Part shown: piece by piece, positions 5,321-44,618 of the stretch
Numbering within the stretch: the first letter of the stretch is position 1
How the letters are laid out: every line of letters starts with the position of its first letter
DNA from: Cystobasidiopsis lactophilus
Taxonomy: Eukaryota > Basidiomycota > Agaricostilbomycetes > Agaricostilbales > Chionosphaeraceae
NCBI GenBank assembly: GCA_001599975.1
Contig: BCIO01000003.1
Coordinates: forward strand, 3,520,762-3,584,761
Direction: 5' to 3'
DNA length: 64,000 nucleotides
Program-made: the position numbers and the translations under genes
The notes under the pieces: model-generated
The model's database searches: none
The model's input: only the letters and a program-made list of their open reading frames with translations
What the model was told of the DNA's origin: nothing

Positions 5321-6193
5321 ACGAATGTTGGCGGGACGCCCACCACATCACATACCTATACCTTTCTCTTTGATAATTTATACAGTATGCATTCCTCGTT
5401 CAACTTCGGCACGCCGCCACTGGCTGGACTTTGGGAGGCGTTACTACAAATGCGATGAGCCTTGGCCCCTCTTTGACAAATCACTCTCACTGCCACGGCA
5501 AGGCTCTTGATCTCCCGACCAGAAGCTGTGGGCTCGGCCGGTGGATGACCTCCGTGGCTGATTCTTCTGCCAGCGCAGTGCACAAGTTGACGGAGTACGA
5601 CCGTCTCGTTTAGACGGGCTGCCCTCGTGTCTCGAATATGAAGAAATGAAAGTCTTCATTGTAAATTTAACAGCACATTGATCTTGTGCTTTCCAAGTCG
5701 CGCTCTGCAGCTTGCTACTAGAGCCCAGCGCGAAGACGTCGAACCTCGGACCTGTGCTGCCCTTTCCTTCGGCACTGGCGGCATTTCTTCCCATGCCTCT
5801 GTCATTCTGGGTGTCTGGCTTCCTGGTATCCGCATTCTTGGGACCTCTACACGCATCCGAAAGCTTCGAGCCTGCCTTTTCTTCATGCACGCCGGCTGCT
5901 TCCGGTCAGCAGTGCGACCTTTGCGGAAGGTGCTCTGGTCTCGAACGAGTTGATGATGCTGAAGGGCGGTGGCAACTCTGGATAGCGACTTTGCCACTTG
6001 ACGAGTTGGAGAAGGTCAGTCGGAAACCCTCTTGACACAGGTGCGCGGTTACATTCTCGAAGTCTCCAAAACACTTGCCGAGACTTGTCTCAGAAGTGAG
6101 GCGACCTGGAAGTGTCCGACTGAGGCTCTTCTCTTTCGCATCCGCCATCCCACTTTGATACCAGTTTGCAACTCCTTGCCGTCCTCCCACAGA
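5321..6193. other. Intergenic, no supported gene
   Basis: About 870 nt between the unknown spliced gene and the first secreted-protein copy. Short open frames occur on both strands, but none has a convincing start, splice set or resemblance to the neighbouring family. Confidence 0.4.
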
Positions 6194-6730
6194 ATGCTTT
6201 TCTCTACTCTCGCTTTCTTAACTCTCTCTCATCTTGCCTCAATCGCCCGCGGTATCATCTTGTACGAAGGCGCTGGCTGCACCGGAAACGTTCTCTTCAG
6301 GATGCAGCTCCAGGACGGTCAGTTCTTCTACAGTTTCCTTAGAGCTTGGGAGCTTAAACCATTTGGTGAATTCAGGACAATGCGCTGATATGTTCAATGC
6401 AAAGAGCGTCCGCATGTCGGGCAATCTTGGCATCATGAGCCTTTACACCGAGTCCGTCACCTGTGACGACATCAAAGCCAACAAAGGTGGCAGCGTCTTC
6501 ACCATCAAAGGCGACGACGCCGTTGGCTGCAAGGTGAGTTTTTGCTGGACAGTCAATTGGCTCGGGCGAGACTGATTTACGGTTGGGCAGGACGTGCACA
6601 ATACAGCTGGCGATGGGTTGGTGATTCATCTGGATCGACGGGCCATCCGACTCATGCTCTTCTCATATATGTCAGATTCAGCTTCCACGCCGCTTCGTAT
6701 GTTCTCAACCCCAAACGTCGCCTTGCCTGA
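6194..6730 (+). CDS. Small secreted Cys protein, tandem copy A
   Basis: Four exons: 6194-6317, 6376-6533, 6591-6616, 6676-6730, encoding 120 residues. An N-terminal hydrophobic signal peptide (MLFSTLAFLTLSHLASIARG) is followed by a mature part with four Cys, in contexts GCTG, GQCAD, TCDD and VGCK, so two disulfides are possible. Conserved landmarks shared with the other copies are ILYEG, NAKSVR, LYT, NTAGDG and FSFHAA, and the protein ends in a basic KRRLA. No domain is recognised by eye. The alternation of short hydrophobic strands with a Y.....C.G start loosely recalls small beta-sandwich secreted proteins; that is inference only. The gene is one of four direct tandem paralogues spanning 6.2-10.7 kb, all on the plus strand. 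Confidence 0.85.
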
Positions 6731-7549
6731 AGGGGGAAGGGGACTTCGGTGGCGTCCGTGTCGCTATTCCGTATCACAAACTATCGTTGCTTATTCACTC
6801 GTTATGCGTCCAATTCTTGTATCTCTACACCGTCCTTGTAATTTTGAGATCAGCCACCAAAGGCTGCGGTTAGGAATCCCCCGCCAGCGGAGGACTTTTG
6901 CTTGTTGCGCTCGCCCGGCCAAACCTGCCTTCCCTGCCTCTCTCGCATGGTGTACGAGCCCAGCCCCCAATAGTCAGATCTCTTCGCTCGGTTGGTGTGC
7001 GTAGAAGGGCCAGAGCAGGACGATTTCCAGCTACAGCCCGCCGGCAGCTCAGCGAGGCCCTGCGAGGGGCCTCTAGCGTCTGCCAAGTCTTGCTTCAGTC
7101 GCCCTGTTTCTGCTTAGCTTTCGAAAGTGTTAGAAAGACGTCCTGGCTGTCGTCACCTTGCCCTCGGTCCCGTGGCTTCATTTCTTTGGGCCGGCTGTGA
7201 GGTTTGGTCCGACAGCTCGAGTTTCCCGCTGGATCCTTTTGCGTCACTCTGCATCCCCAAAGCACTTCACGACGCTTCTGGCCAGCCACTAGCAGGGTTA
7301 ACACTGCTTCATGACAACCACCAGCTTCTCGCTGGGCCCCAAAGTCGCATGCTAGCTGAAGATGCCCAGCCAGCTCAAAGTTTGGCGCCACGAGCGCCGC
7401 GGGAAGGCCCAGCTGCGCCCTTGGGGGCATCTGGTCTTCGCAGGCAACCCTTTCTGCTAGCAAAACCGCAACGTTGCCTCTCTTTCTCGTTCCACCACTT
7501 CCTCTTGCCACACACACACACACACACACAAATCCCAAACTCTCAAACC
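6731..7549. other. Intergenic between secreted-protein copies A and B
   Basis: About 820 nt. The start holds a short match (GGTGGCGTC) to the 3' flank of copies C and D. The end holds a (CA)n tract just upstream of the copy B start. No other gene supported. Confidence 0.4.
7509..7530. repeat. (CA)11 dinucleotide microsatellite
   Basis: Eleven uninterrupted CA units lie 20 nt upstream of the ATG of secreted-protein copy B, in its likely 5' UTR or core promoter. Such tracts vary in length between strains. Confidence 0.9.
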
Positions 7550-8000
7550 ATGCGATTCACCGTTGCTTGCCTGTCCGCTTTGGTCGCTTTCACATCGACT
7601 GCCCATGCATTGGTTGCCTACGCCGGAGCAGACTGTACCGGTGCAATCACGTTCAATCAACAATTGAGCAGCGGTGCGCACCAGCTTTGTTCATTCTCAT
7701 ACACGAGATTGGGACTCATGTTGGTGACGACCTACCTGCAGGACAATGCATTGGCCACATCAACGCCAAGAGTGTCAAGCTCTCCTCCACCCAGGGTCAT
7801 ATGACCATGCATCTTCAAATCGACGACTGCGGCAACATCGGCTCTGGAGCTCCCGATGCCACTGTCGTTCTTGCCGGTGACCTCAACTGCCACGTAAGCC
7901 TCTGCAATTCAGTTTTCACACTGAGGGTGTGTATTCATCCCCACCCCCTCAGAACGCCCCTGTTGGCTTCAACTTCCTGTCTGCTCAATACTCTCTCTGA
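7550..8000 (+). CDS. Small secreted Cys protein, tandem copy B (divergent)
   Basis: Three exons: 7550-7673, 7742-7893, 7953-8000, encoding 107 residues. Exon 1 is 124 nt, as in all four copies, and encodes a signal peptide (MRFTVACLSALVAFTSTAHA). The mature part keeps the four Cys (DCTG, GQCIG, DDCG, LNCH) and the NAKSV and LSS landmarks, but diverges elsewhere. It lacks the separate 26-nt third exon of copies A, C and D, and ends in FLSAQYSL instead of the basic RRL tail. It is thus the outlier of the array, either older or under different selection. Confidence 0.8.
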
Positions 8001-8735
8001 ACACCTTCTCCCGAACTCGTAAGCCTTGCTTTGCAGTAACCTCTCTCTTTCCTACTTGTGTTTATCGTTGAGTATCTAGGACATTCGCCCAGCCGGAGGC
8101 CAGCTCAAGGGGGGCGAGCCTGCTGGTAGCGTATGAGACATCTCCAGAATTTTTCGACCGTACCTTTTCTGCTTCATCATCTATCCCGCCCAATGATATC
8201 GCTTCTACGGACCGGGATGAACCTTGCTTGGCTTGATTGCAAAGTCTTCTCGATTGCTTTCCCCTTTCACTGTGCTGCCTTCCTCCTTTCTTCTTCTGAG
8301 AGCACAAACGGACCGAATGTCCTTGAGCGCGAAGATATTGGTCTTTCTCGTCATGTTCATCGGACTCTCGAGCGGCCCTTCCTGGGCCGAGAATTTGTCT
8401 CCTCGGCGACGCCTTCTTCTCTTTGCCCTCGAACAGGCGCAACCTTGCCGGCCAAGCTCCCTCTCACAGATCCCTGTCTGGATACTTGTTATAGTAATAC
8501 TCTCTCGTGTCTCAAGAGAGAGAGTTGCTCAGATTGCAGAGTGTGCGCAAACAGGCTCGGACATTGGTTGGCTCTTTGACAAGAAGGCTCTTCTCGTTTG
8601 AGCCCAGACAGGTTTCTAAGCCTGTCCAGAAGAAGTCCAGCACCCAACATGTTTGAAGTCTGCCCCTAAAGATTCGCCTCTTTGCTGGTTGCCCTTCACA
8701 AACCACGTCCTCTTCAGCCCCTCCACCCTTCCAGT
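8001..8735. other. Intergenic between copies B and C
   Basis: About 735 nt. Apart from one weak small reading frame listed separately, nothing is supported here. Confidence 0.35.
8317..8601 (+). CDS. Possible 94-residue secreted or membrane small protein
   Basis: A single uninterrupted frame from an ATG at 8317 opens with a signal-peptide-like segment (MSLSAKILVFLVMFIGLSSG then PSWAEN), followed by a second hydrophobic stretch (IPVWILVIVILS). It shares no landmark with the flanking secreted-protein family. No homologue recognised. It could be chance in a pyrimidine-rich spacer. Confidence 0.2.
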   Translation: MSLSAKILVFLVMFIGLSSGPSWAENLSPRRRLLLFALEQAQPCRPSSLSQIPVWILVIVILSRVSRERVAQIAECAQTGSDIGWLFDKKALLV

Positions 8736-9275
8736 ATGTTCATTAAACCCATAGTCCTGGCGACTTTTTCTTTCGTGGCCTCCGCTGTGCGCGCCATTAT
8801 ACTGTACGAAGGTGACTACTGCCAGGGAGCGATTGTCTTCAGGCTGCCGCTCGCGGATGGTAAGGCCCATTTCCGCTTGTTACCAGGCCTGGGCTGACGG
8901 ACCCCAGGTCAATGCGCCGACTTATTCGACGTTAAGAGCGTCAGCTTGACAGCGAGCCTCGGCACCATGACCCTCTACACGACGCCGGGGGTGACTTGCG
9001 ACCAAATCAGGCAAGGCAAAGGCGGGCCCTCGGTCAGTCTCACCGGGGACGCTGGCGTCAAATGCACTGTGAGCTCCGTGTTCTCGGACTTGTTGGTCTT
9101 ACCAAGACTCTGACGACTTTGCCGCATAGGATCCCAAAAACGGAGCGGCCAGCGGGTTAGGTCCTCCTTTCATAGGTCCTCGGAACCTTGACCTTATTCA
9201 TTGTCTTTCTGAAGCTACAACTTCCACGCAGCCGTGTACAATCTGCCCAAGTCGGCGAAGCGTCGCCTTTCCTGA
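8736..9275 (+). CDS. Small secreted Cys protein, tandem copy C
   Basis: Four exons: 8736-8859, 8908-9068, 9130-9155, 9215-9275, encoding 123 residues. Signal peptide MFIKPIVLATFSFVASAVRA, then the family pattern: ILYEG, four Cys in YCQG, GQCAD, TCDQ and VKCT, then KSVSL, MTLYT, ASG, YNFHAA, and a basic tail AKRRLS. Exon sizes 124, 161, 26 and 61 nt and all intron phases match copies A and D. The 3' flank shares GCGCCCCGGTGGCGT and TTTTGTACATCTGGAATG with the flank of copy D, so the duplicated unit included the 3' UTR. Confidence 0.85.
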
Positions 9276-10170
9276 ACCTCAGAGCGCCCCGGTGGCGTCG
9301 TCTCATTCTAACAGCTTTTCCATCCACTCTCCCTTCGACTAGAACGCTCTTGTTTTGTACATCTGGAATGCTAACTTGACCGAGCCCCGCTAGAGAACTC
9401 GCTGACCTCTGCTGGATTTGCGAACGACATCTTGAGGTCAATCAGCCGCCACGCTCCCTTGGCAGCACCTCGAGCCGACCGGAAGACGTCTTCATCGAGT
9501 CTCACTCCTACTCTAATAGACATTCAAATGTTCCCCAAGCCACTGCCGGACTGCCATGCCCTGGCGGGAGCCTGGATCGCCTCCCGTGTTCGGTCGAATC
9601 TGGCGCTCTTGCTCTTGCTCTGGTCTGGCTTTCTTAAGCTGCTCTGGGACCTTGAATAGCATTTTTTGATCACTTGAGAGCCCAATCTGCGCCGTGGACA
9701 ATGTCCGCTTTTGCCTCTTTGCCGCGATGAAAATTGCGAAGGGCGTCTGCCTGGCCTGGGGGCTCTCGGGTAAGTCGGCATTCCTTCTTGGCGAACCCTC
9801 ACTCGTTCAAACAATGGGCACTGTACGGACTCTGCCCGCCTCTCAAGTCTTCTCGTTTGCCTTGGACCGTCTTCAATCGCTCCTCGGGCAACCCCTCCGG
9901 ACTATCGCCTCTGCCTTGCCAACATTGACCACATCACAGTATAGCCAGCAATGGGATCTTGGCGGGTAAACAATGACCAGACATTGATTGACCAGAATCA
10001 CCTTCTTTGCGTTTGACAGATTCCGTCCTGTTCGGTTGACTTGCCCCCCTCCTTCCTTTGGTCTCCGTCCTCAACCACCATTTCTAACGCGGGTCGTTTT
10101 CTCTCATTTTACTCAACGCCGGTCGTTTTCTTCCTCTCCTTCCGAAAGCCATCCTTAGTCGACGAGAGCC
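9276..10170. other. Intergenic between copies C and D
   Basis: About 900 nt. The first part is the 3' flank of copy C with blocks that recur after copy D. No coding exon is supported in the rest. Confidence 0.4.
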
Positions 10171-10723
10171 ATGATCTTGACCGCCGTCGCCTTTTGGTTC
10201 TTACCTCTTCTGGCAGCCTCGGCCCGAGCGCTCATCTTATACGAAGGCGCTGGCTGTACCGGAACCGTTATCTTTCGCTTACCCCTCGCAGACGGTGAGC
10301 CCCTTCCTCTTCTTAAGAGACCAAAAAAAAGGCTGAGAAAGATCGAGCGGACAGGACAGTGCGCGGACATGTTCAACGCCAAGAGCGTCCGCTTGTCTTC
10401 CAACCAGGGCACGATGAGCTTGTACACGGACGCGTCGGTCGGGTGCGACGCCATCAAAGGCGGCAAAGGCGGCAATGCGGTAGTCCTCAAAGGTGACGCT
10501 GGGGTCGGGTGTACTGTGGGTCGTCTCCCTCTCTCCTTTTTGCATGCTCAAGCTCTGATTCTCAATGGCATGGTCTATAGGACGTCAGCAACACCGCAGG
10601 CGACGGGTTGGTTTCTCCCCCCTTGATTGCTTATGACCCAAGACTGCCTAGCTCATTTCCCATCATTTCAGGTTCAGCTTCCACGCTGCTGAATGGACGT
10701 ACAGCGGCAAGCGGCGTCTATAG
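10171..10723 (+). CDS. Small secreted Cys protein, tandem copy D
   Basis: Four exons: 10171-10294, 10355-10515, 10581-10606, 10672-10723, encoding 120 residues. Signal peptide MILTAVAFWFLPLLAASARA. The mature part begins LILYEGAGCTGTVIFRLPL and keeps GQCADMFNAKSVRLSS, MSLYT, four Cys, DVSNTAGDG and FSFHAA, ending in GKRRL. It is closest to copy A in the centre and to copy C in the 3' flank. The three 124-161-26 nt leading exons repeat exactly in size between C and D. Confidence 0.85.
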
Positions 10724-10955
10724 CTTGATCTTTGGCTTCAGACAGGGCGCCCCGGTGGCGTTCTCTTGTTTTGTTTGTTGCCCCTCCTTCTCCTTTACGT
10801 TCTTTATTAGACGCTGCTTTTTTGTACATCTGGAATGTCATTTCGAGCGCGGATCCAGCACCTTTTGTGTTGACTTTTGAGTATTTCTTACCCGCACGCC
10901 GACCACGAACCCTCTCTCTCGGTGTTTTGCCTGTCAAGGGCGGCGCCTTCGGCAA

Positions 10956-13711
10956 ATGTCGAACGACTCGAAGCTGTTCGTGAGGGGTGCGTTGTCGCCA
11001 CTCAGCCATAAGCTCCAAGGCCCCAGAGCTGAGGGAAGGGCACAGGCAAGGTCAGCGAGCTCAGAGCGGAGCTGCAGGCCGAGCAAGTCTTCCTCTACCT
11101 TTAGTGCTTAGCGTGCACTTATATGGGGTGGATGCATGCAGCAAGAAGGACAAGGGCTTCACCAAGCGGAAAGCGACCCTGTGAGTCTCGCTCGGGCGCG
11201 CACCTCCTCGGAGCTGAGATGTGCGCGAACAGCAAGAAGGTGGTCGCTGGCATGACTATGGGCATGGTGCGTTTAAGACACTTCTCTAAGCATTTGGCTT
11301 AAGGCAAGCGTGGACAGGACATGAGCGGCTTGTTCACCGACATTGTCAACTGCTTGGAGGTCCCTTCCCTCGAGGTCCGTCCCTTGCCCCTTGCACTTCT
11401 ATACCGCCTGTGTATTGAACTAGTTTTTGGGTGGACAGGTCAAGAAGATGTGCTAGTTCGTAGACTCCCACTGTATTGACCTCAAGGACAATGCTTGAGA
11501 GGTGCCCACGAACAGCCTGTATTTGATCAACTACGCCCGGTCCAAGCCCGACATGATCCAATACGCCCTCGAATCCATGTCCAACGTTTGTCCTCTCTCA
11601 CCCACCATCTGCGTCGAAGATGCAGTAAATCAGAGCGAAAACAGGACTGCAACGACCGGAACCCGTTGATCCGGGCGCTCGCCCTGCGCACCATGTCCTA
11701 CATCAACCTCCCCGTCGTCCTCTCCGCCCTACTCGACCCGCTGCACCACGCTCTTAAAGACTCAGACCCTTACGTGCGCAAGACGGCGGCTGTCTGCGTC
11801 GCCAAGCTCTACATGCACGACCGCCAGCTCGTCGACAAAGAGGGCTTCGTCGCTAACCTCCGCGACCTGCTTGCCGACTCCAACCCCACTGTCGTAGCGA
11901 ATTGTGTTGCGGCGTTGATTGAGATCAGCGAGAAGAGCGACAACATCCAGCTAAGGCTCAACATGACCATCGCTTCTAAGTTGGTCAATGCCATGGCCGA
12001 GTGCTCAGAGTGCGTTTCTCCTCCCCTACGCTTTATTGAGCCTTCTTTTGTAGCTCATGAATGAGGCGTGGAACAGCTGGGGGCAAACCTACATCCTCGA
12101 GTCGCTCATGTACTTTGTGCCGGAGGAGCACACCGACGCCGAGCTGCTCGCCGAGCGCATCTCCGTCCGCCTCCAGCACGCCAACTCGGCCGTCGTGCTC
12201 ACCACCATCAAGGTCATCCTCTACCTCCTCAACTACATGGCCAACCAGGACACCGTCGACGCCATGTGCAAGCGCCTCTCCCCGCCCCTAGGTTTGTGTC
12301 CTCTTCCCACTATTGAAACCCTTTAGCAAATGGTTTCTAAAATGACGCTGGTAATGGCAAACAGTAACGCTGCTCTCGTCCGGCTACGAGGTGCAGTACG
12401 TGGCCTTACGCAACATCCTCCTCATCGTCCAGCGCCGCCCCACCGTCTTGAGGCGGGAGGTGAAGGTCTTCTTCTGCAAGTACAACGACCCGATCTACGT
12501 CAAGCTGGCCAAGCTCGAGATCATCTACCGCCTGGCCGAGGAGAAGAACGTGGAGCAGGTCCTCGCCGAGCTCAAGGAGTACGCCAACGAGGTGGACGTC
12601 GACTTTGTTCGGAAGGCCGTGCGCTGCATTGGGCGCTTAGCTATCAAACTCCAATCCGCCGCCGACCGGTGCATCGCCACGCTGTTGGATCTGGTCGCTA
12701 CGAAAATCAACTACGTCGTCCAAGAGGCCATCGTCGTCATCAAGGACATCTTCCGCAAGTACCCCAACACGTACGAAGGGGTGATCGCCACGCTATGCGA
12801 GCACATCGACGCCCTGGACACGCCGGAAGCGAAGAGCAGCATGATCTGGATCGTGGGGCAGTACGCGGACCGGATCGAGAACGCGGACGAGCTGCTCGAC
12901 GACTTCTTGCGCACCTTTTTGGAGGAGACCGTCGAGGTCCAGCTGGCCTTGCTCACTGCCACCGTCAAGCTGTTCATCATGCGCCCCACAGCCGGCCAGG
13001 AGCTCGTGCCTAAGGTGCTCAAGTGGGCGACGGAGGAAGTCGACAACCCGGATCTACGGGACCGAGGCTTTGTGCGTCCTTTCTTCCCCCCCTTCTCAAG
13101 ACACTTTCAGTGGTCTTAGTTCCAATGCGCGCGCACAGATGTATTGGCGGTTATTATCAACAGACCCGAAAGCGACTAAGGACATTGTCCTCTCCGAGCG
13201 GCCCTCGATCACCACCGAGTCCGAAGCGATGGACCGGGGCGTGCTGGACCGCCTCTTGCTCCACACCGGCAGCCTGTCCTCCATCTACCAGCAACCCCCG
13301 GAGTCCTTCATCCGCAACGCCAAGCCCAAGCACCTCCACTCCTCCCCCGCGCTCGACCCGGACGCCAAGCGCTCCTTCCTCGAGTCCCTCAACCTCCCCA
13401 AGCACGTCGTGCCCGAGAACGTCGTCTCCACCGTGCCCTCCTCCTACTCGGCCCAACCGCCGGACCTGCCGCCCAAGCCGCTCAATGGCTCCACCGCCTC
13501 CGCAGCGCCCGGCCAGTACTCGGCCGAACCGGACCAGCTGCCGGACGAGGAGGAGGACGAGTTGGACGAGGAGGACACGTTCAACGAGATGGCCGCCGCC
13601 TCCAACGACCCTTACGCCGCGCTGGGCCAGATGGGCGGCGGCTTAGGGAAGCAGTTCTCAATGGACGAAGAGACGGCCGAGCTGGATGGGCAAAGGCCAA
13701 TCTTAGGGTGA
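10956..13711 (+). CDS. APL2: AP-1 adaptor complex beta subunit (beta-adaptin)
   Basis: Large subunit of the clathrin adaptor for trans-Golgi/endosome traffic. Eleven exons: 10956-10986, 11046-11082, 11142-11180, 11233-11266, 11318-11374, 11439-11455, 11516-11585, 11645-12009, 12077-12291, 12365-13071, 13139-13711; 714 residues. The N-terminal HEAT/armadillo trunk follows the family closely ([97 protein letters not shown]). The acidic, Pro/Ser-rich hinge forms the C-terminus; no full ear domain is visible, as in other fungal AP-1 beta chains. The intron at 11083-11141 is GC-AG (donor GCAAGT). Exon 6 is only 17 nt. Length is close to yeast Apl2; AP-1 rather than AP-2 is judged from overall similarity. 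Confidence 0.92.
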
Positions 13712-17320: not shown

Positions 17321-18136
17321 ATGCTGGCAGCCATCCGCGACGGCATTGACCAGCTGGCGAGCCTGAGCGCGGGCGGCATAGAAAAAGACTGGTTGCTTTG
17401 CTCGGACAGCTTCAAGCTGTACAATCTGGTGTTCTGCTTGAACGAAGAGCAAGAGCATGTCCTCTTAGGCCTCAAGAAGCGTGGGTGGGTCGATGTCCTT
17501 GCCCAAAAACGACGAGCAAGAAGTCATTAAGGCGCGTCGTCCAGGATGTGCGCCGGCTACGTGAGGTCCACTTCGCTTCTTTTGAGTAAAAAAAGCTGAT
17601 TGCGTTGTGCAGTACAACGGATTCGGAGGCAAGCCGGAGGGGCAGGAAACCAACGCAGCAGCTGCAGTTCGCGAGCTCGAAGAAGAGAGCGGCCTTGTCG
17701 CCCAGAACATGACCCACTTGGGCTGGCTGCTTTTCGTTGAAGCTGGAAGAGAAGCCTCCAATCTCGTCGAGGTCTTCCTGTGCACCCAATGGGTAGGGGA
17801 GCCGGTCGAGAGTGTGAGTTCGCCGCGATGTTTGTGGCATTCGAGCGCAGGTTGACGAAGGCTTCCTTGCTGCACCAGGACGAGATGAGACCAAAGCTTT
17901 TCTCATACAAGGACTACGACAGTGTGCTCTGCCCACTACTCGAAGGCACTCCTCCGCCCCTCCCAATTGCCCAGATGCTTGTCGAAGTCCCGACCTACCT
18001 GCGCTTTGTGTTTGCCAAACAACCTTTTTGGTGTCGCGTCGACTTCTCACCTCACTCAGAGGACAACAAGAGCCCGCGTGGCTTTGAAGAGGTCGTATTG
18101 AAGTGGAAAGTCGGAGCAGCTCCGACGCCACCGTGA
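17321..18136 (+). CDS. Nudix hydrolase, MTH1-like (oxidised purine dNTPase)
   Basis: Four exons: 17321-17480, 17532-17560, 17613-17813, 17879-18136; 215 residues. The Nudix box is GKPEGQETNAAAAVRELEEE followed by SGL. The flanks match human MTH1 in order: LYNLVFCLNEEQEHVLLGLKKR, then MCAGYYNGFGGK (the MTH1 GRWNGFGGK region, encoded by a 29-nt micro-exon), then ESDEMRPKLF after the box (the MTH1 ESDEMRP element). The role is hydrolysis of 8-oxo-dGTP and similar oxidised nucleotides before they enter DNA. The C-terminal 60 residues are longer and less conserved than in MTH1, so one more intron there is possible. Confidence 0.88.
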
Positions 18137-23983: not shown

Positions 23984-26900
23984 AATGGAGGACGACTACC
24001 ACTCGCAGCGCGACGATGTGTGGGTATCGCCTGCCAGGTGGGGACCCCGCCTTGGGAGCAAGCAGAGCGGTGCTGAATGCTGCCCGGTCGGACAACAACA
24101 GAGCGACTTACCACCCAGACGCCAAGGCCACGAACGAGAACGACCTGGACGCAGGCGACCTCATAGAGCAAGACCCAGACGAGTTCAGCGGCATTAAACT
24201 GTCCCCCAGCAAGGCCAGGGTCAGCACCTCGCCCTCGTTCGTCCCCCCGTTTGATATTTACATTTGGAACCCGCCCACTGAACCCGCGCCCGCATTTTCC
24301 AGCTCCAAGAGCGAAGTCAATCAACCGGACGTTTCGGACGACGAGCAGCCAATAGTTCAGTCGCCGGCGCGCAAAGCTGCAGCCAGACCTTCGACCGCCA
24401 GCGCGGTCATTGACCTCGCCGGCTCTTCGTCCGACTCTTCCGACGAAGATCCAGACGCCATCTCCCAAATGCTCTCTCCTCCTAAAAGGCCGGCGCCCGC
24501 TCCGTCCAAGCCAGCGCTGCGCAGAACCACGCCAAGGCGAGCCGCCGCTCCCAAACCGCCCGCGGCGCCTTCGCCCGGCGGCCTGCGAATCGTCTACGGC
24601 CTCAAGGCATCGAGGCCCACCTCTTCAGACGAGGAGAACGAGGAAATTCGGCCCAAAAAGAAGAAGAAGGTCATCCAAGCCTCGGACGACGACGACGACG
24701 CCCCGAAAGCGCCGCCCAAACCCAAGAGGCTCAGCAGAGGCGCCCCTGCTCCCAAGAAAGCGCCCTCTCCCGTCACACTCGACACCTCTGACGAGGACGA
24801 AGAGGAGGAGGAAGATAGCGCGGAGGAGCGCGAGCTGGCCAAGGCCGCCAAGTCCAAAGACACCCTCGCCGCCGCCGCTGCCCGCATGAAGCTCAAGGAG
24901 AAGCAGCTGCGCGACCGCCGCCGCGCTTTGGAGGCCAGCGACGAGGAGCTGCCGGACGCTGCGACCATGGAGCTGCCCAAGCGCAAGGCCAAGGCGGCCG
25001 AGCCGGAAAAGAAGAAGAAGTCGGCCAGCAGCTCCAAGGAGAACGGCAAGGCCAACAAGAAGGTCAGGCTCAACGGCAAAGTGCGCGACAAGACCAACCC
25101 CTTCTCCCTCGCCGCCAAGGCGTCCGGCTCCGGCTCGTCCAAACCTTCCTCGTCGTCCAAGCCGCCGGCTTCCAAGCCAAAGCCCAAAACCAAGGCGCAC
25201 GTCGTGGTCGAAGCGCCACCTCGCAAGTCGCTCAAAGCCTACTTTGACAAGCCGCCTCCTGCGAACAAGCCAGCCGCGTCCTCGTCCAAAGCGACCACTT
25301 CCAAGAAGCAACCCCAGGTCATGGATCTGGACCCTACAAGCGACGAAGAGTCCGAGGAAGAGGATGAAGAGGAGGAGGAGACGCAGCCCATCACTGGCAA
25401 AGGCTCCCAGCACGAGCCTGTCACTTTCACCGACTCCTCGGCCACGTCGGACAGCGACGCCGACGAACCAGCTCCAGCTGCCAAGCCCCAGCCCAGCGCA
25501 TCTAAGGGCAAGCAGCGAGCTGTCGAGAGCGACGACGATGACGAGCAGCCGGCGCGCCCTGCTCCCAAGAAGGCAGACACCACGAAGAAGCGCCAGGTGG
25601 TGGCCGAGGATAGCAGCGACGACGCTGCCGCTCCCGCCCCCAAGACCCGTACTTTCGCTCCCAAAACCACAGCCAAACCGACCGGCCACAAGGCCATCGT
25701 CGATTCCGAATCGGAGGAGGACGACGCTCCCCAGCAACCGCCCTTGTTCAGACCGGCCTCTCGCGAGAGGCCCTCGGCGTCCCAGTCGCCGAAGAAGAAG
25801 CCTGATGTCAAGCGCAAAGCCCCGACGCCAGATTCGGACGCCAACGACTCGGATGACACGGCGCAGATCAAGAAGGCTCTGACCGAACCCAGCAGCTCCA
25901 AGAAGCCCTCGCCGCTCAAACACAACGTCCCATCTAGCTCTCCAGCCTTGAAGGGCAAACCCATCTTCAGCTCAAGCTCGCCGGAAAAGAAGAAGGCTTC
26001 CACCAACGGCAACAGCGGCAAGCGGCAAAAGCTGTCCAAGGGCAAGGGCAAGGCCAAGGACACCAGCGGCAGGCTCTTTGGTCCTGCTTCTGATGAAGAG
26101 GCCCAGGAGTCGTCCTCCGAGTCGGAAGCCGAAGACGACCTGGAGTTTGACAGCCGCGAGGCGGTCGAGTCCCGCCTGCGAAGCCAAGTCTCGCCCGAAC
26201 GCCGCCCTCCCCGAGTCGACAAGCTTGAAGCTCTAAAGCTGACCCGCTTGCAGCGCGAGAAGAAGAAGGAGGACCGCCGCCGTGGCGTTGTGCCCGAGTC
26301 GGAGGATGAGGCGCAGGTGCAGGCTTCCCAGCCCGCCTTCGCCCAAGATTTCGAAAGCCTGCCCTCCGAGTCGGTTTCTGGCTCTGGGGAAGAGTCGCAG
26401 GTGGAGGACTTTGTCGAAGAGGACGGCTCGGATGCCGAAGATTTCCGCCACGAGATGCCTCAGCAATTCAGCACCGCGGCCTTGCAGCCCCTGTCCTGGC
26501 ACTTCAAGAATCTCATCGTGCTCTTCATCACTATCGAAATCATGCCCAAAGAGAAGATCACCGACTCCGAAGCCAAGATTTCCCGCGCCAAGGTGGAAGA
26601 CAAGATCGAGTCCATCACCAACTCGATCCGTTCCCAAGTTTGGCGACCAGCCTTCAATCAGGCACTCGAGCTGCCACATCAGGATACGGCCCGGCTACCC
26701 CGCACGATACCTGATTGCATGGCGTGCACCAGCGGCGGGAAGACAAGCTCGAACCGAATCACTTTCACGGGTCGGCCTTACAACACGAAGACACTGGAGC
26801 TCACGGCCAACGACCCCATACGCAAGAGCTTTGATGTAGGCTCGGAGTGCCTTCAGCGCGCCCAGCTTTTTCACACGATCAGACGTGGGGTTTCGCTCTT

Positions 26901-27251
26901 GGATTGGTTCTCATTCGTCAGCTCATCTGCGGTGCATCCATCTTAGATACTCTCTGGCATCTGCGCTCTCACATCCGAGTTCAGGTCCAAAAGCATAGAC
27001 AAACTGACGAAAAGGTATTTTCGAGCACCGGAGACCAAAGGTCAAACTCAGCCGGTACGCCTTTTTGCCAGGTTGCCAAACCCACGGACGACAAACACGG
27101 TCGAAGATGGCTCACCAACTATACGCAAGATGTCAACTACGTGAACGAATTGCTCGAAGCTGAGGGCTTCCACGACCACCAGTGGGAAACCTTCTCGACC
27201 TCGTTGAACACGGCCGAGTCGCGGTATGCCAACGTTGTTCTCACTGCCTAA
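23984..27251 (+). CDS. DUF4211 protein with long acidic/Ser/Lys-rich region
   Basis: Exons 23984-24018, 24102-26884, 26947-27014 and 27072-27251 give 1021 residues. About 800 residues after the start are disordered, alternating acidic-serine blocks (DLDPTSDEESEEEDEEEEET) with Lys/Pro-rich blocks and several NLS-like KKKKK or KRK runs, as in nuclear chromatin-associated proteins. The C-terminus is a DUF4211-like domain: HEMPQQFSTAALQPLSWHFK, SQVWRPAFNQALELP, a CMAC pair, FTGRPYNTKTLEL, then across two introns RAQLFHTIRHTLWHL and VNELLEAEGFHDHQWETF. The domain's function is unknown; nuclear location is inferred. The start relies on a 35-nt first exon; the central exon of 2.8 kb is unusually long here. 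Confidence 0.82.
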
Positions 27252-38153: not shown

Positions 38154-38473
38154 TGTCGTCGAACAAGGTGCTCGAAACAGAGGAGAGGCAGGAATGTCGT
38201 GACGGTTTGGCGGAAGGGCACCAAGCAAACTCGAAGATCGCCTTGCACTCCTCATTGACTTGTCACTTTTGACTGCACCGCGCACGAGCATTCTCCCTTG
38301 GCGCCGCTTCGATTTTGTTTCTCTTGCACCACTCCCTGACTCCCTGCTCCTGCTTTGCTATCTGTCTTCTCCCTCTTGATACCCCTGCGCCTCTACGCCA
38401 CCCACCCAACGCAACGACGGCCTCCTTCAACCCACTCCGCCGCCTCCCGCCCGTCAGCAACGACCAGCGTAGG
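38154..38473. other. Intergenic
   Basis: About 320 nt, pyrimidine-rich toward its right end. It is the likely promoter and 5' leader of the glycosyltransferase gene. No gene seen. Confidence 0.4.
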
Positions 38474-41336
38474 ATGGCGAGGACCAGCTCGAGGCTACGC
38501 GTCTTCGTCTTTCTGGTCGCCGCCGTCGTCCTCTTCCGCGCCGACCTGTTCTTCAGCGGCGGCGCCACCAGCGGCGGCAACAATGCTGGCAGGACCAAAA
38601 AATCCGCGTCGCGCTTTGGCAACCGGGCGATTCACGATCTGTCAAAGCGCTTCACCGGCGGCCACTACTACGACGACAGCGAGAGCATCCACATCGCGCT
38701 CACCTGCGACGCTTCCCGCTACTCCTTGGGCCTGCTCGCCGTCCTCAACTCGACCTTGCAAAATGCCCGGGAGCCGGACAGGATCCTCTTCCACTTGTGC
38801 GTTGCTTTGTCCGCTTTATCTCAGCCTGGTGGGATGTTTGTTCACGCCGAAGCGTCACAGGGTCACCTCGGAGACGGACGACACGCGCGAGATGGAGACG
38901 CTCATCTCGTCTCACTTTGCCCGCTCAGCCTTGAAGCCGCGTTTCAAAACCTACCTGCTCGACCTCTCCCCCGAGCTGGGGCAGGACCAGAGCGTCAAGG
39001 TGTGGGCCAACTACCGCGCCTCGTCTCTGTCCAAGCCCATCGTCTACGCCCGCTTCGTCTTTGGCCGGCTGTTCGAGAATTTGGACAAGATCATCTACCT
39101 CGACCAGGACACGTTGGTCCTCCGCGACATTGCCGACCTCTGGGACAACGTCGGCCTAGAAGGCTATCCTTTGGCGGCCGTCCGCTTGTGCAGGGCCGAG
39201 TTCCGGAGGGCGTTCAACTTTCGCCAGGCCATCCTCGTCGACAAGCATTATGACCACGAGTGCGTTTCTTTGTCTCTGGCTGTGCCATCTGTGCTGGACC
39301 TCAAACTCCTCTTGTATCCACAGCGAATGCGTTATGAACAAGTCCGCTTAAGATTTCGTTTTACGTCAAACCTTGGTAGCGGACTGATAGCGACTTTCTC
39401 CAGCGGCGTGCTGGTGTACAACCTGACCCAGTGGCGCGAGCACAACTATTCAGACGAGCTCTTCAACTGGACAAAAGCCAATGCCCAGACTAAGCTCTAC
39501 GAATTGGGTTCTCAGGTATGCCTCCCCATCCCTTCCGCTTACATTCGACTTGGGACCTGAGGATATGGAACAGCCACCGTTCAACTTGGTCTTCTACAAG
39601 AACTACAAAGTCCTCGATCACCGATTGTGCGTGCTGCCCTTGCTTCGACGCTACGCTTCTAAAGTTTTCGGCTGTGATGCACAGCAACCTGATGGACCTC
39701 TCGGGCCTGAAAGACACGGATGGCAAGCCCATCACAGTATCTCCGTGAGTCAGAGTCTTCAATGGGGCTGCGCAACGGGCGCTGATTGCTGGTAATGGGC
39801 CATGGCAGCTTTGCAATTTCCCAGGCCGTCATAAGTGAGCTGGCTCATGGCCGCTTGTTGAGGAAGGTCTTCTCAGCTCATTGCATCCACCACAGTTCAC
39901 TGGAACGGCTCGTTCAAGCCCTGGTTTGGCTGCGACGGTTACTACTCCGAGCTGTTCGAACAGTGGGTCCAGTTCCACTTCTTCACACTGTCTCAGGGCA
40001 CTGAATGGAGTCACAGCTACTTCCCGGACTATCGAATGCACATTGGCAGCGATGAAGAGGAGCCGAGCCAGGCGCACGACCCCGCCTGTGATTCGCTGGT
40101 TTGGACGAAGAACCACGGCATGCACTCAGACACGGAAAAGGTGAGCCTTGGCGACCTCTATCGAGATTATGTGTCCGACGGTGTCGCTGCTCACAGTTCA
40201 CCGTCGTCATCGTCTCGTTCTTGCGGGTCGATAACTTGCTCAAGATTGCGCGGCATCTTCACAAGTCGGACTTTGTTGCTGGTGCGCGCTCTTTCCATTG
40301 GATTGTGTGCATCCACGTTGACACAAGGACTTGCACAGAGATCATCGTGCCCTGGAACAACCTGGAAAAGCCTTGCCCGCCCGAACTCGCACCGCTAGCC
40401 CGCTGCGTTCAGCAAGAGGCTAACCTGGTCCACAACCGCTTTGGAATTTGGCCCGAGGTCAAGACTGAAGCCGTGCTCCACTACGACGACGACATAATGG
40501 TGCCTTTGTACGACTTGGAGGCTGCATTCAAGATCTGGCGAGCATCGCGGGATCAAATGCTGGGCTTCGAGCCGCGCGTCGTCTTCACCGAAGGGGATCG
40601 GAAGGTGTACCGGTTCATCCTTAGCAAGGGATACTTCGACCTGGTCATCGGTTCGTTGTGTCCGCAATCTTTTGGCTCAGGGAGATTGGCTCACTAAGTG
40701 GTCGCAATGATGAACAGGCAAACTCTTCTTCGTCCACCGCCGGTTCATGGAGGCCTACATGGAGGCGCCTGCGCTACTCGAGCTCAGCACAAAAGCCCCT
40801 TGTGAAGATCTAGCAATGTCCTTCCTTGTGCGTTCCAGCCTGTTTTCCTCGATCACCTCCTCATCAAGACGTTGGGAGCAGGTCGGCTCGGAGACCGGCA
40901 AGCCGCCACAGTTCTTCAAGTCGAACCTGACAGAGATCAAGTCGTGAGTGCCGCTCCTTATTCCTTGTCGTTAAAGGTCCCAACGGCGACAACAGGGCGC
41001 ATTTTGCCGGCCTGAGTCAAGGGATTGACACAAAGAGTGAGCTCTCTCGCACAGAAACCAACGTGACATCGGGTCTTATGTTACTGCGCAGTCTGGCGAG
41101 AGGAACGACATAACTGCATCCAGATGCTCACCGACATCTTTGGCCGGGTGCCTGTCCGCCCGCAGAGGACGTATTTCGGTGAGTTCGAGACCTTGTTAAT
41201 TCCTTGATTAGCTGAGAAGTCCTGCGCATTCACAGAGCACAACCACGAGATCGACCGCACGGTCAAGCTCAAGATCCGGGAAGGCGACTCCTGGTGCTCA
41301 GACAAGTTCGGAAGCCGGCCGTGCCGGCAGCCATAG
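38474..41336 (+). CDS. Bifunctional GT8-GT64 glycosyltransferase
   Basis: Type II membrane protein: basic N-terminus, then one transmembrane segment (LRVFVFLVAAVVLFRADLFF), so Golgi/ER lumenal domains are expected. Fifteen exons: 38474-38796, 38861-39259, 39324-39341, 39404-39515, 39574-39626, 39685-39744, 39809-39834, 39896-40140, 40197-40281, 40339-40650, 40718-40827, 40882-40943, 40996-41036, 41092-41178, 41236-41336; 677 residues. Domain 1 is GT8-like: IHIALTCDASRYSLGLLAVL, the DxD motif as DQD in KIIYLDQDTLVLRD, NNGVLVYNLTQW, and IIHWNGSFKPW. Domain 2 is GT64, exostosin-like: FTVVIVSFLRVDNLLKIARH, EIIVPWNN, the metal motif HYDDDIMVP, GKLFFVHRRFM, CEDLAMSFLV. The two domains follow directly within one transcript. 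Substrate unknown; a GlcNAc or hexose polymer or glycolipid is a guess. Confidence 0.88.
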
Positions 41337-41723: not shown

Positions 41724-44393
41724 TCACGAAAGCATCTCTTTGAGCGCCTCTTGTAACCGCTCCCATTCCGGCTCATCTCCAAAGGTGGCCTTGGTGCGAC
41801 CGAGGAAGGAGCGGACCATGCTCCTGGCCTGGGCTTTCCAGTTGGTGGAAGTAGTAGCGGTGTCTTTGGTCTGGCTGCCAATGTTCTGCCAGACTGCCAG
41901 CATCTCGTGCACCTCCTCCGCCGCCTCGTTGAAGCGCGCCAGGTTGGTGTCGATCAATGGGTCTTGGACGAGGCAGCGGTAAGCCTTGAGGTTGTCTTCC
42001 AGGCAGCCCTCCAGGTCGCCTTTCCAGAGACAGAGGCGGGCGTGGGCCTTGAAGATGCGGGCGTTGGTCGAGAACCGTGGGAGTAGGGTCTGGTCGAAGA
42101 GCTCGGTGACGCGCGCCGCCAGCCCGCGAGCCTGCTCGACTCCTGCTTCAGCGGCCGTGTCTCGAGTGACGGCATCGACCAGGCGCTCCATGACTGGCAG
42201 GTCCACGCTTTTGTCGCCATCCTTGTCCCCACGGAGCTCGACCATTGTTCTTAGCGCTCGGCAGGCTTCAGAAAGGTCGCCGACAGCAACAGCCACGACC
42301 ATGTAGTTGGTCCAAATGCGCCAGGAGCCTCGATCGTGCTTGACGGCTTGCTTGAGGCATTGGAACGCGGCTAGCTTGCGGTTCAGAGTGATGCGACCGC
42401 CATTGATCCCTGTCGTCGACAGCTCGTCATCGTCGGCGGCGTCCTCGACAGCGGCTCGGCGGTCCACCATTTGCAAATGGACAGACGCCAGGTTGGTCCA
42501 GCTCTCCGCGTCCTCATTGTCGAGCGCGACGCAGCGGGAGAAGGCTCTCTCTGCCTCGACCCAATTTTCGATCTTGATCTGGCTGCAGCCCAGAACGAAC
42601 CAAGAGCGAATGCTGAGTGGATTGATGCCGACTGCTCGTCCGAGGCATTCGGCAGCATCGATGTAGTCTTGGTTGGCGAAGTGGAAGCCGCCCAAGGACC
42701 GCATGGCGCGCGCTGATTGTCGTTCTGACACCACCCACGCCTTTTCAAAGTGCTGGGGATCCCGGGTGAGGTCGCCCATCAGGCAGTGAAGCTTGCTCTC
42801 GCGCTGCTTGTTCATGGTGGCGACTGGACCGCCTCGTCGTCGCTCCAGCATGACGTGCTCCGATTCCGCCTGTGTCCCATCCAACAAACTCTTGACCAGC
42901 TCCAACGCCTTTTCCTTCTGTTCGGTCGAGATGTAGCACTTGACCACCTGCTCCCACATTTCCAGCCTTGTGAAGATCTCCAGCGCTGACCTGGTGGCGC
43001 CAATGCCGAGATACCGCTCCGCAAGCTCCTTTTCAAGCTCCCATCGTGGAGGCAAGGCCAGAACGTGAAAGTATCGCAGGCGTTCGGCAGCCGTGGCACC
43101 GGTCTCCTGCTTTGGGGATTCGGCTTCGGATTCGAGCTTGAGTTGGTCGACTAAGGACTGCATTTGCAAGACGCCTCGCTCGACCGTTCGGGTTCGGGAG
43201 GCTTCCAGGCGAGAGCGGAGGAGAAGTCCCATGGAATGGACAGACCAATTGGATGCGGTTTCCAAACACCTCGAAACGAAAGCGGCCACTTGGGAAGTGG
43301 TCAGACCATGGCCCGGAGACTGGTTGGCGTGGTTGAAGGACAGAGAAAGGAGCAAGCACTGGTCAAATGGGTGGAGAGGAGGTTGGTGGTTGGGATCCAG
43401 GTGAGAGAGGACAGTGCCTTCGGTGACGGAAGAGGTGAACTCGGTCTTCTCCAAGAGCGTGTCGTCGTTCAAAGCGAGCGTCTTGGGCTCGTCTTCGCTA
43501 TTGCCGTTCTTGGAGGTGGCGGGTTTGGGTTCATCGTCATCTTGAGGTCGCTCCCTCCCTTGAGCCAGCACGACCAGCTGCGCCTTGTCGTCCCGCTGGA
43601 ACTTAGTGCGCTTGCCCATGACTCCCGTAAGGTCGTACTCCAACTTTGCTTCTTTTGCGGCTTGCAGGAAATAAAGGGAGGCGTGCTTTTCGGAGGAGGG
43701 CGCGACGACGGACACGATGCGGTGGTAGTGGCCCATCAAGAGAGTTTGCCCGGCTGCCAGGTCAATGTCCCCTTCCTGTAAGAGTCGATCTCGAGCGGTC
43801 ATGATGAGGCCGAGAAGGGGCAAAGGAAGTTCGGCAGGGTCGTCCAAAACGCGCAAGTGGACTAAGGACGTTCGAAGCTGCCAAGTCGAGAGCGAGGGCA
43901 AGAAGTCTTCATCAAGCGAATCTGACACAAAGGCCATCGGTTCCATGGTGAACATTTGTCGGGCCATCAAGAGCAAAGGCGCATGCCGAGTGAGGTGGTA
44001 GATCGGCTCGCCTCGAAACGTCAAAGCGTCGACAGAAGCCTCTTGGAGCTTGGACTCGAGCTCCTCGGTCTTTTCCGTGCCTTTTGGAAGGCAGACGTCC
44101 AGAGGGGTGAAGTGCAGCTCTGGGCCGGTCCAATTGGATTGAACGAAAGCGTGCAGCAAGCTGACTCCCACGGCCAGCTTGGTCTCCGTGTCTAGCGGCG
44201 CCCCGACGGGCTTGGGTTGGTTGCTCTCCGGATCTATTTTGAAGAACGTTTGCGAGGTCAAGACTTGCTGGAATTGACCTTGACAGGCCAGGCGGCAGAG
44301 GTCATTTTCTGGCGACGATGAGGTGCCAGTTTTCGGCCAGTGGCCCGCTAGGAGGGCCTTCTCCGCTTGACTCTGTCGTCCTTGCTTCAGCAT
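41724..44393 (-). CDS. TTC27: TPR protein, TTC27/Emw1-like, single exon
   Basis: One uninterrupted frame of 889 residues. The C-terminal half has tandem tetratricopeptide repeats, for example RSLGGFHFANQDYIDAAECL, SIRSWFVLGCSQIKIENWVE and AESWTNLASVHLQMVDRRAA. Before them come TTC27-type signatures: DQCLLLSLSFNHANQSPGHG, GLLLRSRLEASRTRTVERGV, LQMQSLVDQL, RLRYFHVLALPPRWELEKEL, YLGIGATRSALEIFTRLEMW. Emw1 in yeast affects cell wall and ribosome-related processes; the function here is inferred from similarity only. Absence of introns over 2.7 kb is striking beside its neighbours. Confidence 0.9.
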   Translation of the reverse strand: MLKQGRQSQAEKALLAGHWPKTGTSSSPENDLCRLACQGQFQQVLTSQTFFKIDPESNQPKPVGAPLDTETKLAVGVSLLHAFVQSNWTGPELHFTPLDVCLPKGTEKTEELESKLQEASVDALTFRGEPIYHLTRHAPLLLMARQMFTMEPMAFVSDSLDEDFLPSLSTWQLRTSLVHLRVLDDPAELPLPLLGLIMTARDRLLQEGDIDLAAGQTLLMGHYHRIVSVVAPSSEKHASLYFLQAAKEAKLEYDLTGVMGKRTKFQRDDKAQLVVLAQGRERPQDDDEPKPATSKNGNSEDEPKTLALNDDTLLEKTEFTSSVTEGTVLSHLDPNHQPPLHPFDQCLLLSLSFNHANQSPGHGLTTSQVAAFVSRCLETASNWSVHSMGLLLRSRLEASRTRTVERGVLQMQSLVDQLKLESEAESPKQETGATAAERLRYFHVLALPPRWELEKELAERYLGIGATRSALEIFTRLEMWEQVVKCYISTEQKEKALELVKSLLDGTQAESEHVMLERRRGGPVATMNKQRESKLHCLMGDLTRDPQHFEKAWVVSERQSARAMRSLGGFHFANQDYIDAAECLGRAVGINPLSIRSWFVLGCSQIKIENWVEAERAFSRCVALDNEDAESWTNLASVHLQMVDRRAAVEDAADDDELSTTGINGGRITLNRKLAAFQCLKQAVKHDRGSWRIWTNYMVVAVAVGDLSEACRALRTMVELRGDKDGDKSVDLPVMERLVDAVTRDTAAEAGVEQARGLAARVTELFDQTLLPRFSTNARIFKAHARLCLWKGDLEGCLEDNLKAYRCLVQDPLIDTNLARFNEAAEEVHEMLAVWQNIGSQTKDTATTSTNWKAQARSMVRSFLGRTKATFGDEPEWERLQEALKEMLS

Positions 44394-44618
44394 TGGTATG
44401 TTGCGTTGAGTGAGAACGCCCTCACCATCTTAACGCCCTTCATGGCTGCTGCTAGGTAGGCTTCGCGAACTTTTCGACTTTTTTTGTGGCAAAAAGGCTG
44501 ACAACCTTAAGGCAACCTTTGGATAGGGCAGCACGAAAGGCTGTGGAGCTTTCCCCGTTTCTCCTTGCCTATATTCATCATTGTGATACAAGAGCATGCT
44601 CCCTACTAATGCCCATCA

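What the first reader, a model, noticed from the sequence alone, without database searches (positions are those of the whole stretch)
6194..10723. Tandem array of four paralogous small secreted Cys proteins of unrecognised family
Four plus-strand genes share a signal peptide, four Cys in matching places, landmarks ILYEG, QC(A/I)(D/G), (A/V)KSV and FHAA (the last not in B), and exon sizes. Exon 1 is 124 nt in all four, exon 3 is 26 nt in three. I recognise no known family. Clustered small secreted proteins in fungi often act outside the cell on hosts, competitors or the wall; that role is inference.
Basis: partly seen in the sequence, partly recalled or inferred. Interest (0 to 1): 0.78.

Follow-up and report, generated by a model that had tools for sequence, protein, structure and literature searches.

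The report
Four tandem small secreted fungal proteins
A fungus carries four neighbouring copies of a gene for a small, cysteine-containing, apparently secreted protein; the copies are real and old, their sequence hints weakly at a barrel-like fold also seen in a yeast killer toxin and a plant antimicrobial protein, and their function is not shown.

Summary
Four plus-strand genes (A 6194-6730, B 7550-8000, C 8736-9275, D 10171-10723) splice cleanly. Exon 1 is 124 nt in all four, exon 3 is 26 nt in A, C and D, and four Cys are in register. Mature A, C and D show dN well below dS: old, constrained genes. The ILYEG landmark fails in B (VAYAG). Exon-by-exon searches of the own 22.1 Mb assembly with D and B list no place outside the array at E <= 10.

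No family or PDB sequence match is significant. There is a weak hint of the double-Greek-key betagamma-crystallin fold: Pfam MiAMP1 matches A and D below its cut-off, and a profile of 34 betagamma domains aligns one Greek key onto the first half. 1 of 300 Cys-fixed shuffles of that half do as well, but 31 and 24 of 200 block shuffles of the whole do. The second half is not placed. AlphaFold on the only admissible contiguous reading failed (pLDDT 43.9).

Best reading: an orphan family of small secreted beta proteins, probably betagamma-crystallin/killer-toxin-like, plausibly antimicrobial or wall-binding. Moderate to low interest.

The parts
6194..6730 (+). Gene A, exons 6194-6317, 6376-6533, 6591-6616, 6676-6730; 120 aa, 4 Cys in the mature part, C-terminal KRRLA
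   Evidence: spliced translation; alignment
7550..8000 (+). Gene B, exons 7550-7673, 7742-7893, 7953-8000; 107 aa, most diverged, no intron 3, no KRRL tail
8736..9275 (+). Gene C, exons 8736-8859, 8908-9068, 9130-9155, 9215-9275; 123 aa, tail KRRLS
10171..10723 (+). Gene D, exons 10171-10294, 10355-10515, 10581-10606, 10672-10723; 120 aa, tail KRRL; stop TAG at 10721-10723
   Evidence: for the first three exons; its last exon there ran 5 nt past the stop
6747..6755 (+). CGGTGGCGT in the 3' flank of A; also at 9290-9298 (C) and 10753-10761 (D)
   Evidence: 4 matches in the window (the fourth at 18125-18133, -); chance mean 0.49, 0 of 100 shuffles reach 4
9344..9370 (+). 3' flank block of C repeated behind D at 10811-10837 (89%)
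   Evidence: family D4

Best explanation
An old tandem gene family, seen so far only at this one place in the assembly, encoding proteins of about 87-103 aa after removal of a putative signal peptide. The mature protein probably folds as a compact two-Greek-key beta sandwich held by two disulfides. The first key (Y-x6-G ... C ... K-S-V) is like those of betagamma-crystallins and MiAMP1. It most likely works outside the cell by binding a microbial or wall surface, as HM-1 (WmKT) is reported to do, i.e. as an antagonist of competing microbes. Shown: genes, homologous splice pattern, paralogy, constraint on mature A, C and D, no other place listed by exon-by-exon searches with D and B. Inferred: secretion, fold (about 0.55), disulfide pairing, antimicrobial or wall-binding role (about 0.35).
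For: Genes and constraint. Fold lead: Pfam MiAMP1 (PF09117) matches A (E 0.032, 14.9 bits, residues 21-55) and D (E 0.029, 15.0 bits, residues 20-55) against a cut-off of 26; none of 24 shuffles matched MiAMP1. hhalign of the mature four-gene profile with 34 betagamma-crystallin domains scores 18.0, reached by 3 of 200 Cys-fixed column shuffles, reversed controls 11.74 and 11.84; without B it scores 21.03, D alone 21.34, C alone 20.9, A alone 17.29. First half alone: 35 columns, one Greek key, 1 of 300 shuffles; second half 3 of 300 but only 10 columns. [FYW]-x6-G in 4 of 4 first halves (read). Fold-mates: PMC12715866 (passages) calls HM-1's fold all-beta 'crystalline', cites a structure paper titled as a betagamma-crystallin precursor structure, and says HM-1 binds mannoproteins and inhibits beta-1,3-glucan synthase. 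PMC4695807 (passages) says MiAMP1 has eight strands in two Greek keys, is antimicrobial and resembles that toxin. PMC10462633 (passages) lists the betagamma-crystallin/WmKT double Greek key among 18 orphan-candidate-effector families found in over 80% of 20 fungal species. No other place.
Against: No family cut-off is reached. One of 24 Cys-fixed shuffles drew an unrelated Pfam family at E 0.024, so the MiAMP1 E of 0.03 alone is within chance. Pairwise with MiAMP1, only D's best alignment lies in this register; A's and C's best alignments lie elsewhere and B's is no better than shuffles. Block shuffles that keep short stretches reach the betagamma score in 31 of 200 (blocks of 5) and 24 of 200 (blocks of 8); without the two gamma-B seeds the score falls to 15.97; B alone scores 10.01. 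Reversed B scored best of 8 in hmmsearch. Gamma-B alone gives no signal. The two halves do not match each other (109 of 200 shuffles reach the score), and the second half lacks Y-x6-G in 4 of 4. AlphaFold models are poor (pLDDT 43.9 and 36.6); Foldseek found nothing with the first. MiAMP1 and betagamma-crystallins are thought to share one superfamily (recalled), so their agreement is not independent. Mature pI is 5.6-8.4, not strikingly basic. Expression is unknown.
Confidence: 0.45

Rival explanations
1. An orphan secreted Cys family with a fold other than betagamma-crystallin; the Greek-key resemblance is chance over a short motif. (The rivals here are not mutually exclusive.)
For: No significant family hit, block-shuffle controls 31 and 24 of 200, poor models, no internal repeat, no signal with gamma-B alone.
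Against: MiAMP1 and betagamma-crystallin profiles align to the same stretch with Y-x6-G on Y-x6-G; column-shuffle controls 3 of 200 and 1 of 300.
Confidence: 0.4
2. Host-directed apoplastic effectors rather than antimicrobials.
For: Small, apparently secreted, Cys-bearing, clustered; the betagamma fold is among fungal orphan candidate effector families (PMC10462633, passages).
Against: No host or lifestyle is known for this genome; mature A, C and D are under purifying selection on average; the nearest neighbours that Pfam recognises are a DnaJ and an adaptin-type protein.
Confidence: 0.2
3. Structural proteins of the fungus's own spore, cell or hyphal surface.
For: Protein S of Myxococcus shows that the fold can serve as a coat protein (recalled; one search gives only its PDB name, development-specific protein S).
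Against: No anchor or repeat sequence was seen by eye in the translations; this was not tested by any program.
Confidence: 0.2

Closest known systems
MiAMP1 (PF09117; PDB 1c01), plant antimicrobial protein
   Same: first half aligns with its second half, LYxxAGCxG...C...KS(I/V) (D)
   Different: below the Pfam cut-off; four Cys, not six; second half not placed; longer (87-103 against 76 aa)
betagamma-crystallin domains (PF00030)
   Same: Y-x6-G and the later S-(I/V) strand, one Greek key in profile-profile comparison
   Different: no Pfam match; no second Y-x6-G; no N/D-N/D-x-x-S/T-S calcium motif seen by eye (motif recalled)
HM-1/WmKT yeast killer toxin
   Same: small single-domain secreted protein of similar mature size (88 aa); its fold is the one proposed here
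   Different: not compared by sequence here except through the Pfam scan; 125-aa precursor, longer pre/pro part than the putative 20-residue signal peptide here
Cerato-platanins
   Same: small, secreted, four conserved Cys (PMC4024134, start of abstract in the listing); size about 120 aa recalled
   Different: not among Pfam matches at E <= 10

Membership tests
MiAMP1 (PF09117) | score over the Pfam cut-off of 26 bits | tested here: not met
   14.9 and 15.0 bits for A and D; no match for B and C
MiAMP1 (PF09117) | three disulfides (six Cys) | tested here: not met
   four Cys in the mature part of each of 4; three disulfides of MiAMP1 per PMC4695807, passage
betagamma-crystallin (PF00030) | Pfam match over cut-off | tested here: not met
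   no match for 4 of 4 at E <= 10; none in the assembly, exon by exon (the control rang in 2 of 14 genomes)
betagamma-crystallin (PF00030) | [FYW]-x6-G in each Greek key (recalled definition) | tested here: inconclusive
   first half 4 of 4, second half 0 of 4 (read)
betagamma-crystallin fold | eight strands, two Greek keys | tested here: inconclusive
   model of D lacking its last two exons and carrying a retained intron: pLDDT 43.9, pTM 0.30
betagamma-crystallin fold | profile-profile similarity beyond chance | tested here: inconclusive
   column shuffles 3 of 200, half-wise 1 and 3 of 300; block shuffles 31 and 24 of 200
Yeast killer toxin of the HM-1/WmKT type (Pfam accession PF09207 recalled) | Pfam match | tested here: not met
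   no killer-toxin family among matches at E <= 10 for 4 proteins; presence of the model in the library not checked
Yeast killer toxin of the HM-1/WmKT type | killing of yeasts | not testable with these tools
   needs purified protein
Cerato-platanin | Pfam match | tested here: not met
   not among matches at E <= 10 for 4 proteins; presence of the model in the library not checked

The most novel reading that the evidence does not exclude
A so far unrecognised fungal family of tandem four-Cys double-Greek-key killer-type proteins at a single locus, with a C-terminal KRRL kept in three of four, used in microbial antagonism and diversified by old tandem duplication.
Probability: 0.3. Interest if true: 0.5.

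Novelty: new member of a known kind. Interest (0 to 1): 0.33.

Why it matters
If the fold holds, this ties an unrecognised fungal array to a fold shared by a yeast killer toxin and a plant antimicrobial, and gives four natural variants of one small scaffold on which activity could be compared. If not, it is one more orphan secreted family, of which fungal genomes hold many (inference from general knowledge and PMC10462633, passages).

Tried and rejected
PDB sequence searches with the family profile, with D and with mature A: nothing relevant (one search's four hits at E 0.41-0.76 are three designed proteins and a spike S2' chain, read as chance). NCBIfam: none for 4 of 4. Prokaryote genome contigs and IMG/VR: 90 and 71 stretches matched a peptide pattern, none encodes a relative by tblastn. 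PF09117, PF00030 and PF14856 over the own assembly: none; for PF09117 and PF14856 no control genome rang, so absence is not shown. Internal repeat, first against second half: not supported. Gamma-B crystallin alone: no signal for 4 of 4. Single-sequence hmmsearch against the betagamma profile: 9, 94, 4 and 7 of 500 shuffles reach A, B, C and D, but reversed B scored highest of 8, so I do not lean on it. AlphaFold twice, Foldseek once: nothing usable. Further copies in the window by local tblastn at E <= 10: outside the array the best is E 0.063 (B at 44297-44401), not pursued. Cerato-platanin considered and dropped. Paper searches. I saw their listings (capped at 12-20 papers) and the passages; none of that names this array or its sequence. 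The library holds open-licence PMC papers only, so this does not show that the family is unpublished.

Full report
Observation. The four genes are real and well placed. Splicing at GT-AG sites gives open reading frames of 120, 107, 123 and 120 codons (for the search of the sites). Exon 1 is 124 nt in all four and exon 3 is 26 nt in A, C and D; introns 1 and 2 are at homologous positions and phases in all four, intron 3 in three. B lacks intron 3 and several residues around it. All four Cys are in register. NG86 gives dN 0.234 against dS 1.335 for mature A-D, 0.391/1.508 for A-C and 0.359/2.01 for C-D. dS is near saturation, so the duplications are old and the mature proteins of these three constrained. 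Pairs with B have dN 0.66-0.74 and dS of 1.62, 2.61 or undefined. The first 20 codons have higher dN (0.503 A-D, 0.62 A-C, 0.674 C-D), as signal peptides often do.

Extent. Searching the own assembly (22,136,282 bases in 8 contigs) with D and with B at E <= 10 lists 9 and 7 places, all inside the array. The search runs exon by exon and scores only the best candidates, so a very diverged copy could be missed; A and C were not used as queries. The assembly is fungal: 37 matches to Fungal_trans, none in the 14 control genomes. Of the ORFs that I gave to Pfam (10, 8, one in both), the nearest recognised neighbours are a DnaJ protein at 1761-2660 and an adaptin-type HEAT protein at 11495-12061; the two ORFs tested between DnaJ and the array had no match. 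The direct repeats of 24 nt or more in 5500-11300 (6 families) are stretches of the gene copies (4) and two 3'-flank blocks shared by C and D. A 9-base element CGGTGGCGT starts 17, 15 and 30 nt past the stops of A, C and D.

What family. Pfam at E <= 10 lists only MiAMP1, for A (E 0.032) and D (E 0.029), at 15 bits against a cut-off of 26. Of 24 shuffled sequences none matched MiAMP1, but one drew an unrelated family at E 0.024, so the value alone means little. Pairwise with MiAMP1, D scores 39 in this register and 202 of 5000 Cys-fixed shuffles reach it (191). A scores 38 and C 33 in other stretches (116 and 462 of 5000), and B is at chance (4235 of 5000). The profile score is reached by 12 of 200. 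I then built a betagamma-crystallin profile from 6 seeds and 28 domains from the loci. The mature family profile scores 18.0 against it; 3 of 200 column shuffles with Cys fixed reach that, and reversing either side gives 11.74 and 11.84. The first half aligns over one Greek key (35 columns; 1 of 300), the second half only over its first strand (10 columns; 3 of 300). Leaving out B raises the score to 21.03; D alone gives 21.34 and C alone 20.9. Against this, shuffles that keep blocks of 5 or 8 columns reach the score in 31 and 24 of 200, B alone scores 10.01, and dropping the two gamma-B seeds lowers the score to 15.97. The halves do not match each other. I read this as a lead of moderate strength, not as membership.

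Structure. The fold tool admits only proteins read letter for letter from the DNA, which spliced proteins are not. The one usable contiguous reading (gene D, intron 1 retained, last two exons missing) gave pLDDT 43.9 with strands at residues 2-5, 12-14, 43-45, 52-54, 60-65 and 83-88 and a short helix at 72-76, and pLDDT 36.6 with two strands when folded alone. Foldseek found one match, at E 9.6. In effect the fold is untested.

Mechanism. The proposal is a secreted, disulfide-stabilised beta sandwich acting on microbial or wall surfaces. It rests on the fold lead and on what fold-mates do: HM-1 binds mannoproteins and inhibits beta-1,3-glucan synthase (PMC12715866, passages), and MiAMP1 inhibits plant microbial pathogens in vitro (PMC4695807, passages). 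The same fold is widespread among fungal orphan candidate effectors (PMC10462633, passages). A Rosellinia necatrix study lists one MiAMP1-like candidate (PMC10796067, one passage). Another study describes a cluster of secreted proteins shared by pathogens and non-pathogens in which yeast killer toxin-like domains occur, without saying which killer-toxin fold in the section read (PMC9816061, section 16). A recent paper argues that conserved fungal secreted antimicrobials are common and old; it has no mention of crystallin (PMC13127573, abstract and passages). None of this is evidence about these four proteins themselves. The C-terminal KRRL of A, C and D holds a dibasic KR; whether it is a Kex2-type site or a basic tail is open.

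Verdict. A confirmed, tidy, old tandem family of small, apparently secreted proteins; probably a new member of a known kind. Relatives in other fungi could not be searched, so novelty at sequence level is open. Interest 0.33.

Noticed in passing
6747-6755, 9290-9298, 10753-10761 (+): CGGTGGCGT shortly behind the stop codons of A, C and D; one other copy in the window (18125-18133, -), chance mean 0.49. Possibly a shared 3'UTR element or a remnant of duplication.
   Followed up: partly
C-termini of A, C, D (6713-6727, 9258-9272, 10709-10720): KRRL kept at or next to the C-terminus although the residues before it differ in number; absent in B. Possible Kex2-type site or basic tail.
   Followed up: no
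9280-9370 and 10743-10837: C and D share two 3'-flank blocks (88-89%), while D's protein is closer to A (65%) than to C (53%); gene conversion or uneven rates are possible.
   Followed up: no
24016-26943 (+): 976-codon ORF with a DUF4211 domain near its end (E 2e-19).
   Followed up: no
38355-39557 (+) and 41724-44390 (-): Glycosyl transferase family 8 ORF (E 2.8e-20) and a TPR-repeat ORF of 888 codons as scanned.
   Followed up: no
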